DNA of 38,092 bases from assembly GCA_017620885.1 (NCBI GenBank), contig JAGAUF010000118.1, positions 1-38,092 of the forward strand. Reading direction: 5' to 3'. The DNA comes from Muribaculaceae bacterium (GTDB lineage: Bacteria > Bacteroidota > Bacteroidia > Bacteroidales > Muribaculaceae). Below the pieces are notes generated by a model, which made no database searches, had not been told where the DNA came from, and saw only the letters and a list, made by a program, of their open reading frames with translations. A program made the position numbers and the translations under genes. Each line of letters begins with the position of its first letter. Within the stretch, counting starts at the first letter, position 1. Positions 34,461 to 38,092 of this stretch are shown here, in pieces.

Positions 34461-37121
34461 ATGAGCGAAAACGACAATAAAACGGCACAAAACAGCGCCG
34501 AATTAGCCACTAAATACGACCCCAAGGCTGTCGAAGCCAAATGGTACAAATATTGGGAAACTCACCGTCTCTTCCATTCCGAACCCGACGGTCGCGAGCC
34601 CTTCTGCATCGTCATCCCGCCGCCTAACGTAACAGGCATACTTCACATGGGCCACGCTCTCAATAATACTATTCAGGACATCCTCGTACGCCGCGCGCGC
34701 ATGGAGGGGAAAAACGCCCTGTGGGTGCCGGGAACTGACCATGCGGCTATATCCACCGAGGCCAAAGTCGTCGCAAAACTCGCCTCTGAAGGAATAAAGA
34801 AAACCGACCTGAGCCGCGAGGAATTCCTCTCGCACGCTTGGGACTGGACACACAAATACGGCGGAATTATCCTCCAGCAGCTCCGCAAGCTCGGTGCCTC
34901 CTGCGACTGGGAACGCACGGCATTCACGATGGACGATATCCGTTACCGCAGCGTAATCCGCGTATTCGTCGACCTCTACCGCAAGGGACTCATCTATCGC
35001 GGCGTGAGAATGGTAAACTGGGACCCGCAGGCCCTCACAGCCCTCTCCGACGAAGAAGTCATCTATAAGGAGGAGCAAAGCAAGCTTTATCACCTTCGCT
35101 ACAAGGTTGAGGACGATCCCGAAGGGAGATATATCGTCGTCGCTACCACGCGCCCCGAGACTATCCTCGGCGACACCGCCGTATGCGTAAACCCGAACGA
35201 CGAGCGATATACTTGGCTCAAAGGGAAGCGCGTCATTGTGCCTCTCGTAGGACGCTCCGTTCCTATCATCATGGACGAATACGTCGAGATGGACTTCGGC
35301 ACAGGATGCCTCAAAGTGACCCCGGCTCACGACATAAACGACTATATGCTTGGTGAAAAATACAATCTCCCGAGCATCGATATATTCAACGATAACGGTA
35401 CAATCTCCGAGAAAGGTGGAATATACATCGGCATGGATCGCTTCGACGTCCGCAAGCAGATTATGATCGACCTCGACGCCAAAGGCCTCGTGGAGAAAAT
35501 CGAAGACTACGTCAATAAGGTTGGGCACTCGGAACGCACCGACGCCGTCATTGAGCCCAAGCTCTCCACGCAGTGGTTCGTGCGTATGGCCGACCTTGCA
35601 AAACCCGCGCTCGAAGGCGTAGAAAACGACGAAGTGAAATTCGTGCCGTCGAAATTCAAGAACCTCTACCGCCACTGGATGACCAACATCAAAGACTGGT
35701 GCATCTCGCGTCAGCTCTGGTGGGGACAGCAGATTCCGGCATACTATCTCCCCGACGGATCCTTCGTCGTGGCCGAAACTCCGGAAGAAGCACTCGATTT
35801 GGCCCGTGAGAAGAGCGGCAACCCCTCCCTCTCCGCCGACGACATCCGCCGCGACCCCGACTGCCTCGACACATGGTTCTCGTCATGGCTCTGGCCTCTC
35901 TCACTCTTCAACGGCATTCTCGAACCGGACAACGAGGAAATCCGCTACTATTATCCCACTACCGACCTCGTAACGGCTCCCGACATCATCTTCTTCTGGG
36001 TGGCCCGTATGATTATAGCCGGATATGAATTCCATGGACAGAAACCGTTCAACAACGTCTATTTCACCGGTATCGTGCGCGACAAGCTCGGACGCAAGAT
36101 GTCGAAATCTCTCGGCAACTCGCCCGACCCGCTCGACCTCATCGACCAATATGGCGCTGACGGCCTCCGCATGGGTCTTATGCGAGCCGCACCTGCCGGA
36201 CACGACATTATGTTCGACGAGTCGCTCTGCGAACAGGGACGTAATTTCTGCAACAAGATTTGGAACGCTTTCCGACTCGTCAAAGGATGGAAGGCTGACA
36301 GCGAAATCGAACAGCCCGAAACGGCAAAACTCGGCATTGAATGGTTCTCTAACGTGCTCAACAGAACGCTCGCCGAGGTGGACGACCTGATGAAGAAATT
36401 CCGCATCTCAGAGGCTCTTACGGCCGTCTACAAACTCTTCTGGGACGAGTTCTCCAGCTGGTATCTTGAAGTTGTCAAGCCCGCATACAGCCAACCCATC
36501 GACCAAAAGACCTACGACGAGACGCTCAGATTCTTCGACGTCCTGCTGCGCCTTCTGCACCCCTTCATGCCCTTCATCACAGAAGAGCTGTGGCAACATC
36601 TCGCTGAGCGCCGCGACGGTGAAAGCATCATGTACGCACAGCTGCCCAAAGATGAAGAATACAGCGCGGAAATCATCAGCGATTTCGAACGTCTCAAGGA
36701 AGTTGTGGCCGGAATACGCACAATCCGCCTCAAACGACAGATTCCCAACAAACAGCCCCTCAAACTCCTTGTCAAGGGCGACGCCGATTCTCGTCTCGAC
36801 ACAATAATCCGCAAGATGGGAAATATCGACACGATTGAGAAGTGCGAAGAAAAACCCGCTACCGCTGCATCGTTCATCGTCGGTGGTGCGGAATATATGA
36901 TTCCGCTCGAAAACTCAATAGACAAAGAGGAGGAAATCAAGAAGCTCGAAGCTGAAAAGAAACGCTTTGAAGGATTCCTCGCCGGCGTTCGCAAGAAGCT
37001 CGCCAACGAACGCTTCGTAGCCAACGCTCCGGAAGCCGTCGTAGCTCTCGAACACAAGAAAGAGAGCGATGCCTTAGCAAAACTTGCTGCCATCGAAACG
37101 GCTCTCGCTGCCCTTAAATAA
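34461..37121 (+). CDS. valS: Valyl-tRNA synthetase
   Basis: The 886-residue class I synthetase charges tRNA-Val. HMGH at 62-65 ([18 protein letters not shown]), the CP1 editing domain ([29 protein letters not shown]), KMSKS at 546-550 ([19 protein letters not shown]), an anticodon-binding domain and the C-terminal coiled coil (about 820-886, rich in Lys and Glu) are all in order. Length is typical for the phylum. It is monocistronic, with its own promoter and an intrinsic terminator 30 bases after the stop. Confidence 0.98.
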
Positions 37122-37150: not shown

Positions 37151-37187
37151 AAATTGCTGATGCCCGCACGCGTCAGCAATTTTTTAT
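37151..37187 (+). terminator. Terminator of valS
   Basis: AAATTGCTGA (37151-37160) pairs perfectly with TCAGCAATTT (37173-37182), loop 12 bases, continuing into TTTATTT. It separates valS from the next gene. Confidence 0.85.
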
Positions 37188-37208: not shown

Positions 37209-37240
37209 TTTGGATTTCTTTGATTCTGGTTGTAATTTTG
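37209..37240 (+). promoter_or_regulatory. Promoter of the nuclease-peptidase gene
   Basis: TTTG (37209-37212) and TAATTTTG (37233-37240) are 20 bases apart, a perfect Bacteroidetes promoter. Transcription would start near 37247, giving a leader of about 65 bases that contains the inverted repeat at 37262-37287. Confidence 0.85.
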
Positions 37241-37261
37241 CACTCGTAAAAACACAACATC

Positions 37262-37287
37262 GAGTCTTAGATTCGGATCTAAGGCTC
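37262..37287 (+). promoter_or_regulatory. Inverted repeat in leader of the nuclease-peptidase gene
   Basis: GAGTCTTAGAT (37262-37272) and ATCTAAGGCTC (37277-37287) are complementary over 11 bp with a single T-G pair and a TCGG loop. It lies inside the predicted leader, 25 bases ahead of the ATG. No T-run follows, so it is either an operator for a repressor bound just past the transcription start or a translational control hairpin. Confidence 0.55.
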
Positions 37288-37311
37288 TTAACCATTTAAA
37301 AAAATGACATT

Positions 37312-38092
37312 ATGGACAAAATGAACAAGCTGCGAGGCGAGGCGTATGAACGCTTCGTCTTTGCTTTGCTGCAACGGCAGGTTACGGAGGGACGCATCGG
37401 CGCCCCTCTTTTCGATGTTTCGGTGCATCATCATCGCCGTTACCGCGCTCATTCGGGCAATCGCATTGATACCGACGTCTCCATCGAAGTGCGTCGCAAA
37501 GGTATCAGGAAACGTATGTTGCTGATTCTTATAGAATGTAAGGCATTTTCTCGTTTCCATGCAAAAACGATTCATTTCAACGACCTGCAGGCCAAAATTA
37601 TGCACCTCGGAGCTCACAAGGGATACCTCGTGACGACGTCCCTGCTCTCGAAGGGGGTTCTGCAGCAAGCCGAGCATTACGGCATCGGCATCGTTCATCT
37701 CCCGATGAACGGCACTCCCCGATGGATTGTGGAGCGACGGCCGGAACTATGGGGAGAATCAATCACTCTCCACATTCTCTCCGAGGAGGAAAAACGCATA
37801 GAGGCGACAGCACGCAAAGCCGAAAAAGAGGCCGGCATTTCACGGAAGCCCCGTAACCGCCTCGACGACATCGACCTATTGAAAATAGCGCAGTGGCGCG
37901 GATTCGGAGTCTTCCACGGTCAGTTGCCCGACGGAGTGCGTGGGCTTTGCAACTTCTTCGATTGTTCGATATGGCTATCGACGAAAATGCGTCCCGGGAG
38001 CGCACACTGGCGCCTGACGCTGGCACACGAGATAGGCCATGCGATGTTGCATCCCGACCTGCGGGCCATCGTATGCCGCGAGTCGTCGCGAG
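37312..38092 (+). CDS. Mrr-like nuclease fused to ImmA/IrrE-type metallopeptidase, C-terminus cut off by window edge
   Basis: The frame opens at ATG 37312 (the ATG at 37304 stops after six codons) and is still open at the window end, 260 codons. Residues 1 to about 125 resemble an Mrr-type PD-(D/E)XK nuclease: RIDTDVSIE (D53/D55), LILIECKAF (E75, K77), then GYLVTTSLLSKGVLQQAEHY and GIGIVHL, as in Mrr_cat. A charged linker (about 145-170) leads to an IrrE/ImmA domain: GVFHGQLPDGVRGLCNF, then HWRLTLAHEIGHAMLHPD with the zinc motif HEIGH at 239-243. IrrE-type peptidases usually cleave repressors, and Mrr nucleases cut DNA. The fusion suggests a nuclease controlled by, or controlling, proteolysis, perhaps in defence or stress. 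Base composition matches the host, so it may be long resident. The partner gene, if any, is beyond the window. Confidence 0.82.
   Translation, partial: MDKMNKLRGEAYERFVFALLQRQVTEGRIGAPLFDVSVHHHRRYRAHSGNRIDTDVSIEVRRKGIRKRMLLILIECKAFSRFHAKTIHFNDLQAKIMHLGAHKGYLVTTSLLSKGVLQQAEHYGIGIVHLPMNGTPRWIVERRPELWGESITLHILSEEEKRIEATARKAEKEAGISRKPRNRLDDIDLLKIAQWRGFGVFHGQLPDGVRGLCNFFDCSIWLSTKMRPGSAHWRLTLAHEIGHAMLHPDLRAIVCRESSR

What the first reader, a model, noticed from the sequence alone, without database searches (positions are those of the whole stretch)
37312..38092. Mrr-like nuclease and ImmA/IrrE metallopeptidase in one polypeptide
Seen: one frame carries a D...ECK nuclease signature (D53/D55, E75, K77) with the GYLVTTS block of Mrr_cat, and 160 residues later an HEIGH zinc-peptidase motif in the context typical of ImmA/IrrE. 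Known: ImmA cleaves the ICEBs1 repressor, IrrE cleaves the DdrO repressor after DNA damage, and Mrr-type nucleases act on (often modified) foreign DNA. I know of no characterised protein with this domain order. Inference: the peptidase may sense damage or infection and release the nuclease, either by self-cleavage or by destroying an inhibitor, making this a possible self-contained defence or stress system. The gene stands alone behind its own promoter.
Basis: partly seen in the sequence, partly recalled or inferred. Interest (0 to 1): 0.88.

Follow-up and report, generated by a model that had tools for sequence, protein, structure and literature searches.

The report
DNA-cutting enzyme fused to zinc peptidase
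The gene at the edge of this window encodes a DNA-cutting domain joined to a zinc-dependent protein-cutting domain; the same pairing recurs in distant bacteria with both active sites kept, which suggests an undescribed one-gene defence against phages or plasmids.

Summary
Window ORF 37312-38091 (+) encodes an Mrr-like PD-(D/E)xK nuclease domain (D55, E75, K77) and, in the same frame, an M78 (ImmA/IrrE) zinc-peptidase core (HEIGH, 239-243). A profile built without the window protein scores it 112.8 bits; the best of 200 shuffles gets 6.3. The contig ends inside the gene, so the third zinc ligand and right flank are unseen; the rest was not found in the assembly. Homologues fill the gap: 32 fusion rows (window included) from several phyla keep E75/K77 in 32, D55 in 31, the HExxH glutamate in 31, and the third ligand in 30 of 30 reaching it. 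The peptidase half is closest to CapP, a CBASS-linked peptidase. Hand-picked neighbours include type I R-M, a C5 methyltransferase with HNH, Wadjet and a HamB-like helicase; no XRE-type repressor partner recurs. My searches found no description of this architecture. Most likely it is a mobile single-gene defence protein whose CapP-like module senses DNA and controls the nuclease in cis. The fusion is shown; defence is suggested by context; the control mechanism is inferred.

The parts
37312..38092 (+). ORF encoding the Mrr-like nuclease - M78 peptidase fusion, truncated by the contig end
   Evidence: homologue profile 112.8 bits vs best shuffle 6.3
37312..37746 (+). Mrr-like PD-(D/E)xK nuclease domain (residues 1-145, boundary approximate); D55 37474-37476, E75 37534-37536, K77 37540-37542
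   Evidence: Mrr_cat E 0.0013, below cut-off; 21 of 23 members of A7 match Mrr_cat at E up to 0.01; active site conserved; profile of homologues 82.5 bits
37747..37926 (+). variable linker (boundaries approximate); shorter here than in homologues: 161 residues between K77 and H239 against 179-235
   Evidence: low column conservation in the matching part of the family
37927..38092 (+). N-terminal part of M78 (ImmA/IrrE/CapP-like) peptidase domain; HEIGH at 38026-38040; third ligand and C-terminal HTH-like part lie beyond the contig end
   Evidence: PADLOC capP E 8e-4; PHROG 2439 E 6.7e-6; profile of homologues 34.8 bits
37209..37240 (+). promoter-like sequence: TTTG, 20-nt spacer, TAATTTTG (Bacteroidetes consensus recalled)
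   Evidence: read by eye; no test of activity
37262..37287 (+). 11-bp hairpin between promoter-like sequence and start codon
   Evidence: fold of 37244-37316: z-score -3.8; the only exact match of its core in the 2.08 Mb assembly
37152..37186 (+). terminator-like hairpin and T-run after the upstream gene (valS by inspection), separating it from the fusion gene

Best explanation
A horizontally spread, one-gene defence protein against phage or plasmid DNA. The N-terminal Mrr-like PD-(D/E)xK domain is the effector that cuts DNA. The C-terminal CapP/IrrE-type zinc peptidase, with its HTH-like tail, is the sensor and switch: bound to ssDNA or DNA ends made during infection, it changes state or cuts the variable linker, or a protein held nearby, and so licenses the nuclease. 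Shown: the fusion, conservation of both active sites, scattered distribution, some defence-type neighbours. From published work on relatives: PprI and CapP peptidases are activated by ssDNA. Inferred: defence function, and control of the nuclease in cis.
For: Both catalytic centres kept across phyla: E75/K77 32 of 32 rows, D55 31 of 32, HExxH glutamate 31 of 32, third ligand 30 of 30 that reach it. The stretch between the domains is among the least conserved parts. Peptidase half closest to CapP: PADLOC 23 of 23 members, best 2.9e-22; PDB 7t5t E 8.7e-15, IrrE 3dte E 1.8e-4. PprI and CapP are activated by ssDNA (PMC10904395, passages). Scattered distribution: phyla mixed on the tree; 2 of 37 same-genus genomes. 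Defence-type genes within about 5.6 kb at 9 of the 32 rows, from hand-picked neighbours (10 of 20 scanned matched PADLOC): hsdR-orf-fusion-hsdS with a 4-bp overlap to hsdS, C5 methyltransferase + HNH_2, Wadjet JetC/JetD and a HamB-like helicase, AriA-like ATPase, GajB-like helicase, PDC-M13B, nSTAND3 and a second Mrr_cat protein. No XRE-type repressor recurs among 107 nearest neighbours (HTH_31 in 2).
Against: No functional data. Defence neighbours were chosen by eye and no background rate was measured; 10 of the 20 scanned had no PADLOC match, among them the 283-aa gene beside the HamB-like helicase, so a whole Hachiman is not shown. Many loci look stand-alone among housekeeping genes by eye. 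In the scan of 107 nearest neighbours R-M-type families appear once or twice each. Stand-alone nuclease relatives exist (11 of 34 loci), none with a clear M78 gene in the held DNA, so a peptidase brake is not obligatory in the superfamily. L053, near Wadjet genes, has HKIGH in place of HExxH; L080 has E in place of D55. Some members also match an inactive-REase model weakly (NA-iREase1, 4 of 23 at E up to 0.01). Structure prediction was off, so contact between the domains is unknown.
Confidence: 0.42

Rival explanations
1. Classic antirepressor: the M78 domain cuts an HTH repressor encoded elsewhere, as ImmA, IrrE or CapP do, and the Mrr-like domain is the DNA sensor that positions or activates the peptidase; nuclease activity is secondary.
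For: ImmA, PprI and CapP cut HTH-type repressors (PMC10904395, PMC10440598; passages). Closest homology is to CapP.
Against: Among 107 nearest neighbours HTH_31 is in 2, Darcynin in 3, TetR_N in 4 (plausibly the four Acinetobacter loci, whose convergent neighbour is annotated TetR in L005; the listing does not name members) and every other family in at most 2. The nuclease active site is as strictly conserved as the peptidase site.
Confidence: 0.2
2. Single-chain toxin-antitoxin: the ImmA-type domain acts as cis antitoxin, as RmrA does in trans in RosmerTA, and the Mrr-like nuclease is the toxin, freed on infection.
For: ImmA-domain proteins are antitoxins for diverse toxins in RosmerTA systems (PMC10440598, passages). 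All 23 A7 members match at least one RmrA model at E up to 0.01 (for the first member the match lies in the peptidase part).
Against: None of the 11 stand-alone relatives of the nuclease has a clear M78 gene in the held DNA (weak matches in L069 and L070 only; flanks short or one-sided in L070, L078, L079). The fusion lacks the N-terminal HTH often seen in such proteins. HExxH is nearly strictly kept, though it is unknown here whether antitoxin action needs catalysis.
Confidence: 0.18
3. Peptidase effector: the nuclease domain recognises or nicks foreign DNA and thereby switches on a peptidase that cuts a host or phage protein (Lit-like abortive infection; Lit is recalled, not looked up).
For: Same conservation pattern; ssDNA activates M78 peptidases (PMC10904395, passages).
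Against: The M78 substrates met in the passages read are HTH regulators; no direct support.
Confidence: 0.12
4. Ordinary modification-dependent (type IV, Mrr-like) restriction nuclease, with the M78 fold kept only as a DNA-binding or structural module.
For: Mrr_cat matches; HKIGH in L053 shows that one lineage lost the catalytic glutamate; some R-M neighbours.
Against: HExxH glutamate kept in 31 of 32 rows and both histidines in 32 of 32 across phyla, not expected of a structural relic.
Confidence: 0.08

Closest known systems
CapP (CBASS-associated M78 peptidase, PDB 7t5t)
   Same: Best match of the peptidase half among solved structures and PADLOC models; HExxH plus downstream glutamate; CapP is activated by ssDNA (PMC10904395, passages).
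   Different: CapP works with a separate repressor CapH and carries no nuclease (passages and recall); the fusion has no recurrent XRE-type partner.
IrrE/PprI and ImmA
   Same: Same peptidase family (IrrE 3dte E 1.8e-4).
   Different: IrrE carries a GAF-like domain and cuts DdrO (passages); ImmA cuts ImmR (passages); neither carries a nuclease (recalled).
RmrA of RosmerTA and PD-lambda-2 component B
   Same: ImmA-type peptidase domains used in phage defence (PMC10440598, PMC9519451; passages). RmrA models match all 23 members, the PD-Lambda-2_B model 2 of 23.
   Different: Those are often HTH-peptidase proteins working with separate partner genes; here a nuclease occupies the N-terminus of the same chain.
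E. coli Mrr / Mrr_cat type IV nucleases
   Same: Same PD-(D/E)xK domain family: Mrr_cat in 21 of 23 members.
   Different: E. coli Mrr carries an N-terminal winged-helix and no peptidase (recalled).
Shedu (SduA)
   Same: Works-like analogue: PD-(D/E)xK defence nuclease whose autoinhibition is relieved by DNA-end sensing (PMC12904381, passages).
   Different: Regulatory N-terminal clamp rather than a peptidase; relatedness not tested here.

Membership tests
Mrr_cat (PF04471) nuclease domain | Profile match above Pfam cut-off | tested here: met
   Met by homologues (30.6 bits for P0002; 37.5 bits for L052); window protein just below (19.3 vs 21 bits); P0003 gave no Mrr_cat match at E 0.1; bits of the other members were not displayed
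Mrr_cat (PF04471) nuclease domain | D...ExK catalytic residues | tested here: met
   D55 31 of 32, E75 and K77 32 of 32 fusion rows; 11 of 11 solo rows for all three
Mrr_cat (PF04471) nuclease domain | DNA cleavage activity | not testable with these tools
   needs purified protein
Peptidase_M78 (PF06114) | Profile match above Pfam cut-off | tested here: met
   Met by homologues (P0002 34.6, P0003 44.3, L052 50.5 bits against 22); the truncated window fragment is below (14.5)
Peptidase_M78 (PF06114) | HExxH plus downstream glutamate ligand | tested here: met
   HExxH seen in window; glutamate 30 of 30 rows that reach it; not visible in the truncated window gene
ImmA-ImmR / CapP-CapH type two-gene switch | Adjacent HTH repressor gene as substrate | tested here: not met
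   107 nearest neighbours from 32 loci: HTH_31 in 2, no recurrent XRE-type partner; window not among them, its right flank unseen
CBASS (CapP as accessory) | CD-NTase and effector nearby | tested here: inconclusive
   None recognised by eye in the flanks and none in the displayed matches of the 20 neighbours scanned with PADLOC; not searched systematically
RosmerTA | HTH-ImmA antitoxin with adjacent toxin gene | tested here: not met
   N-terminus is a nuclease, not an HTH
Type IV restriction | Cleavage of modified DNA | not testable with these tools
   no assay

The most novel reading that the evidence does not exclude
A protease-gated nuclease in one chain: an ImmA/CapP-type peptidase that senses infection DNA and switches on its own covalently attached nuclease, that is, a self-contained defence system of one protein with no repressor, ATPase or second messenger.
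Probability: 0.35. Interest if true: 0.82.

Novelty: new variant of a known kind. Interest (0 to 1): 0.62.

Why it matters
M78 peptidases are known as switches that destroy repressors or act as antitoxins; nucleases are common defence effectors. A widespread family that couples both in one chain, with both sites conserved, would be a minimal sensor-plus-effector defence unit and an experimentally simple way to ask what M78 peptidases sense. In the annotated records seen here the gene is named an ImmA/IrrE peptidase or DUF955 only, so the nuclease half is overlooked.

Tried and rejected
Chance motif match: rejected by an independent profile and shuffles. Two adjacent genes or a frameshift: rejected, one open frame in the window and in most homologues; broken copies exist (L040 in two frames, L041 with one stop, L083 with a broken C-terminus, L058 cut short). 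Missing 3' end on another contig: not found; the same query found four of four control genomes, three of them not in the query alignment. Single-protein search of viral contigs gave no relative; an alignment of closer homologues worked. A regulon built on the leader hairpin: the core occurs once without mismatch in the genome. A shared leader palindrome: of 26 homologue leaders (200 bp) 22 gave none of at least 9 pairs; L054, L055, L063 and L076 gave unlike ones. A separate M78 gene beside the stand-alone nucleases: of 546 ORFs at 11 loci, one in L069 matches at 19.0 bits over the HEIAH stretch only and one in L070 at 12.2 bits; three fusion loci run as positive controls gave 271-317 bits. The Acinetobacter 'phage' and 'plasmid' homologues are not taken as evidence for phage or plasmid carriage, because both records look chromosomal. 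E. coli genomes: no match to the Buttiauxella gene by blastn, which would miss distant copies. Tree: the window row is a long branch (3.16), joined to another long branch, so its place is unsure; the split between fusion and solo forms has support 84/79, so one origin is suggested, not proven. Passages of further papers (one search found none of its terms) describe no Mrr-M78 fusion.

Full report

The gene is cut. The contig ends before the third zinc ligand and the C-terminal HTH-like part. A profile of C-terminal parts finds no match in the window's own assembly at E up to 1, while it finds the corresponding part in four of four control genomes, three of them not used to build it. The rest of the gene is therefore probably missing from this assembly, and the right neighbour cannot be known.

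The left side. The upstream gene (valS by inspection) ends at 37121; a hairpin with a T-run follows (37152-37186), then a promoter-like TTTG-20 nt-TAATTTTG (37209-37240; Bacteroidetes consensus recalled) and an 11-bp hairpin (37262-37287; fold z-score -3.8 for the stretch). The core of that hairpin occurs without mismatch only here in the assembly. Of 26 homologue leaders searched, 22 gave no palindrome of at least 9 pairs and four gave unlike ones.

The family. Of 61 relatives searched with the window protein, 37 were of the same genus, and 2 of these 37 carry a match: the window's genome and G030. Of 393 genomes of the order, 6 including the window's own match both halves in one intact frame and 2 more carry broken copies. 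Of 395 genomes of the phylum, searched at the strict limit E 1e-15, 3 including the window's own do. In named genomes 32 loci were found by the nuclease half and 2 in viral contigs: 23 of these 34 encode the fusion, 11 encode a nuclease of about 200 residues standing alone (one of them, L070, apparently broken). A profile search of the 546 ORFs at the 11 stand-alone loci finds no clear M78 gene: one weak match in L069 (19.0 bits, HEIAH stretch only) and one in L070 (12.2 bits), against 271-317 bits for three fusion loci run as controls; flanks of L070, L078 and L079 are short or one-sided. By the tree's labels the fusion occurs in Bacteroidota, Ignavibacteriota, Campylobacterota and Pseudomonadota, and the stand-alone form in Chloroflexota, Planctomycetota, Bacillota, Cyanobacteriota, Pseudomonadota and Bacteroidota. 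On that nuclease-domain tree phyla are mixed, and fusion and stand-alone forms are separated by one branch of moderate support (84/79), so the fusion may have formed, or been lost, once. The window row is a long branch and its place is uncertain.

Catalytic residues. In 32 fusion rows (window included; L004 and L005 are near-copies; L040 is a broken copy; L041 was left out) E75 and K77 are kept in 32, D55 in 31 (glutamate in L080), H239 and H243 in 32, E240 in 31 (lysine in L053), and the downstream glutamate in 30 of the 30 rows that reach it. Between the domains lies a poorly conserved stretch; the spacing from K77 to H239 is 161 residues in the window and 179-235 elsewhere. Of 23 members scanned at E up to 0.01, 22 match Peptidase_M78, 21 Mrr_cat, 4 NA-iREase1 (a family named inactive) and 2 SprT-like. 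I do not take the family as inactive, because the D-ExK residues are kept.

Relatives. The peptidase half is nearest to CapP: PADLOC capP matches all 23 members, best E 2.9e-22, and PDB CapP 7t5t scores E 8.7e-15, IrrE 3dte E 1.8e-4. Other PADLOC matches at E up to 0.01: RmrA models in up to 23, the candidate model PDC-M69B in 16, PD-Lambda-2_B in 2, Specificity_I in 2, PDC-S02 in 1, mREase_IV in 1. In NCBIfam 21 of 23 members match the spr1629 repressor/antitoxin model at E up to 0.01, but the first member scores 36 bits against a cut-off of 335, over the peptidase part only. In annotated records the gene is named DUF955 or ImmA/IrrE peptidase.

Neighbours. Twenty neighbours that looked interesting were picked by eye and scanned with PADLOC; 10 matched and 10 did not. 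Ten were scanned with Pfam. So the following is without a background rate. Defence-type genes lie near the fusion at 9 of the 32 rows: within a type I R-M operon (hsdR, small orf, fusion, hsdS; the last two overlap by 4 bp; L038, the same locus as L066), after a C5 methyltransferase and an HNH_2 protein (L042), after Wadjet JetC and JetD with one further gene between (L053), after a HamB-like helicase whose own neighbour had no match, so that a whole Hachiman is not shown (L077), after an nSTAND3 protein without PADLOC match (L076), beside a second Mrr_cat protein without PADLOC match (L063), 3.6 kb from a GajB-like helicase (L039), about 5.6 kb from an AriA-like ATPase (L004), and 0.8 kb from a PDC-M13B protein (L037). 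The broken copy L041 follows a viperin-like and an AAA/TPR gene. Against this, many loci sit among housekeeping genes by eye. A scan of 107 nearest neighbours from 32 loci (window not included, L041 included), not chosen by content, shows no recurrent partner: TetR_N 4 (plausibly the four Acinetobacter loci), Darcynin 3, eight families twice (HTH_31 among them), the rest at most once; 25 of 132 families were displayed, sorted by count.

How it may work. ssDNA activates PprI (IrrE), and the same paper reports that ssDNA also activates cleavage of CapH by CapP (PMC10904395, passages). ImmA-type domains also serve as antitoxins in RosmerTA (PMC10440598, passages) and an Xre-peptidase fusion is part of PD-lambda-2 (PMC9519451, passages). 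With no recurrent XRE-type repressor beside the gene and a strictly conserved nuclease on the same chain, I think control of the nuclease in cis by a DNA-sensing peptidase is the likeliest single mechanism, at about 0.42 for the whole chain of inference; a defence role in some form I hold at about 0.7. Shedu shows that a nuclease held back until it senses DNA ends is a workable design (PMC12904381, passages).

Literature. Searches for this architecture showed no paper describing it in the held library, which lacks most subscription journals; long search listings were cut at the number asked for, and of papers opened I read passages only. One search returned no paper for its four terms together. 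The EMBO J. paper on CapH/CapP (its identifier recalled) is not held.

Verdict. Observation confirmed; interpretation partly supported; new variant of a known kind. It is a real, widely scattered and apparently undescribed fusion family that is simple to test.

Noticed in passing
37262-37287: Strong 11-bp hairpin between promoter-like sequence and start codon; core unique in the assembly. Could be an operator, an attenuator or nothing.
   Followed up: partly
37121 and L088-L117: The stretch after the valS-like gene differs among same-genus genomes (only loci with the gene on the + strand could be parsed); one (L095) has a gene that by eye resembles the PDC-M13B protein of L037, so it may be an insertion spot.
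   Followed up: partly
L053:8989-10260: Niastella caeni copy near Wadjet genes has HKIGH instead of HExxH: loss of the peptidase glutamate with the nuclease site kept.
   Followed up: no
L004, L005: The 4.09 Mb Acinetobacter 'plasmid' record and the 'Acinetobacter phage MD-2021a' contig look like chromosomal DNA (record size; nrdA, nrdB, metE nearby).
   Followed up: no
L061:1170-5200 and L059:6416-7204: Two stand-alone nuclease relatives lie near genes that by eye look like OLD-type ATPase and UvrD-like helicase genes; not scanned with profiles.
   Followed up: no
L069:9765-10859: A convergent gene beside a stand-alone nuclease carries HEIAHHIL and a later EADAAA stretch, and matches the family's M78 profile weakly over the HEIAH part only: perhaps another zinc peptidase family.
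   Followed up: partly
L119:4971-5714: Rhizobium gallicum plasmid gene matching only the peptidase half of the family, just after a transposase gene; perhaps a remnant.
   Followed up: no
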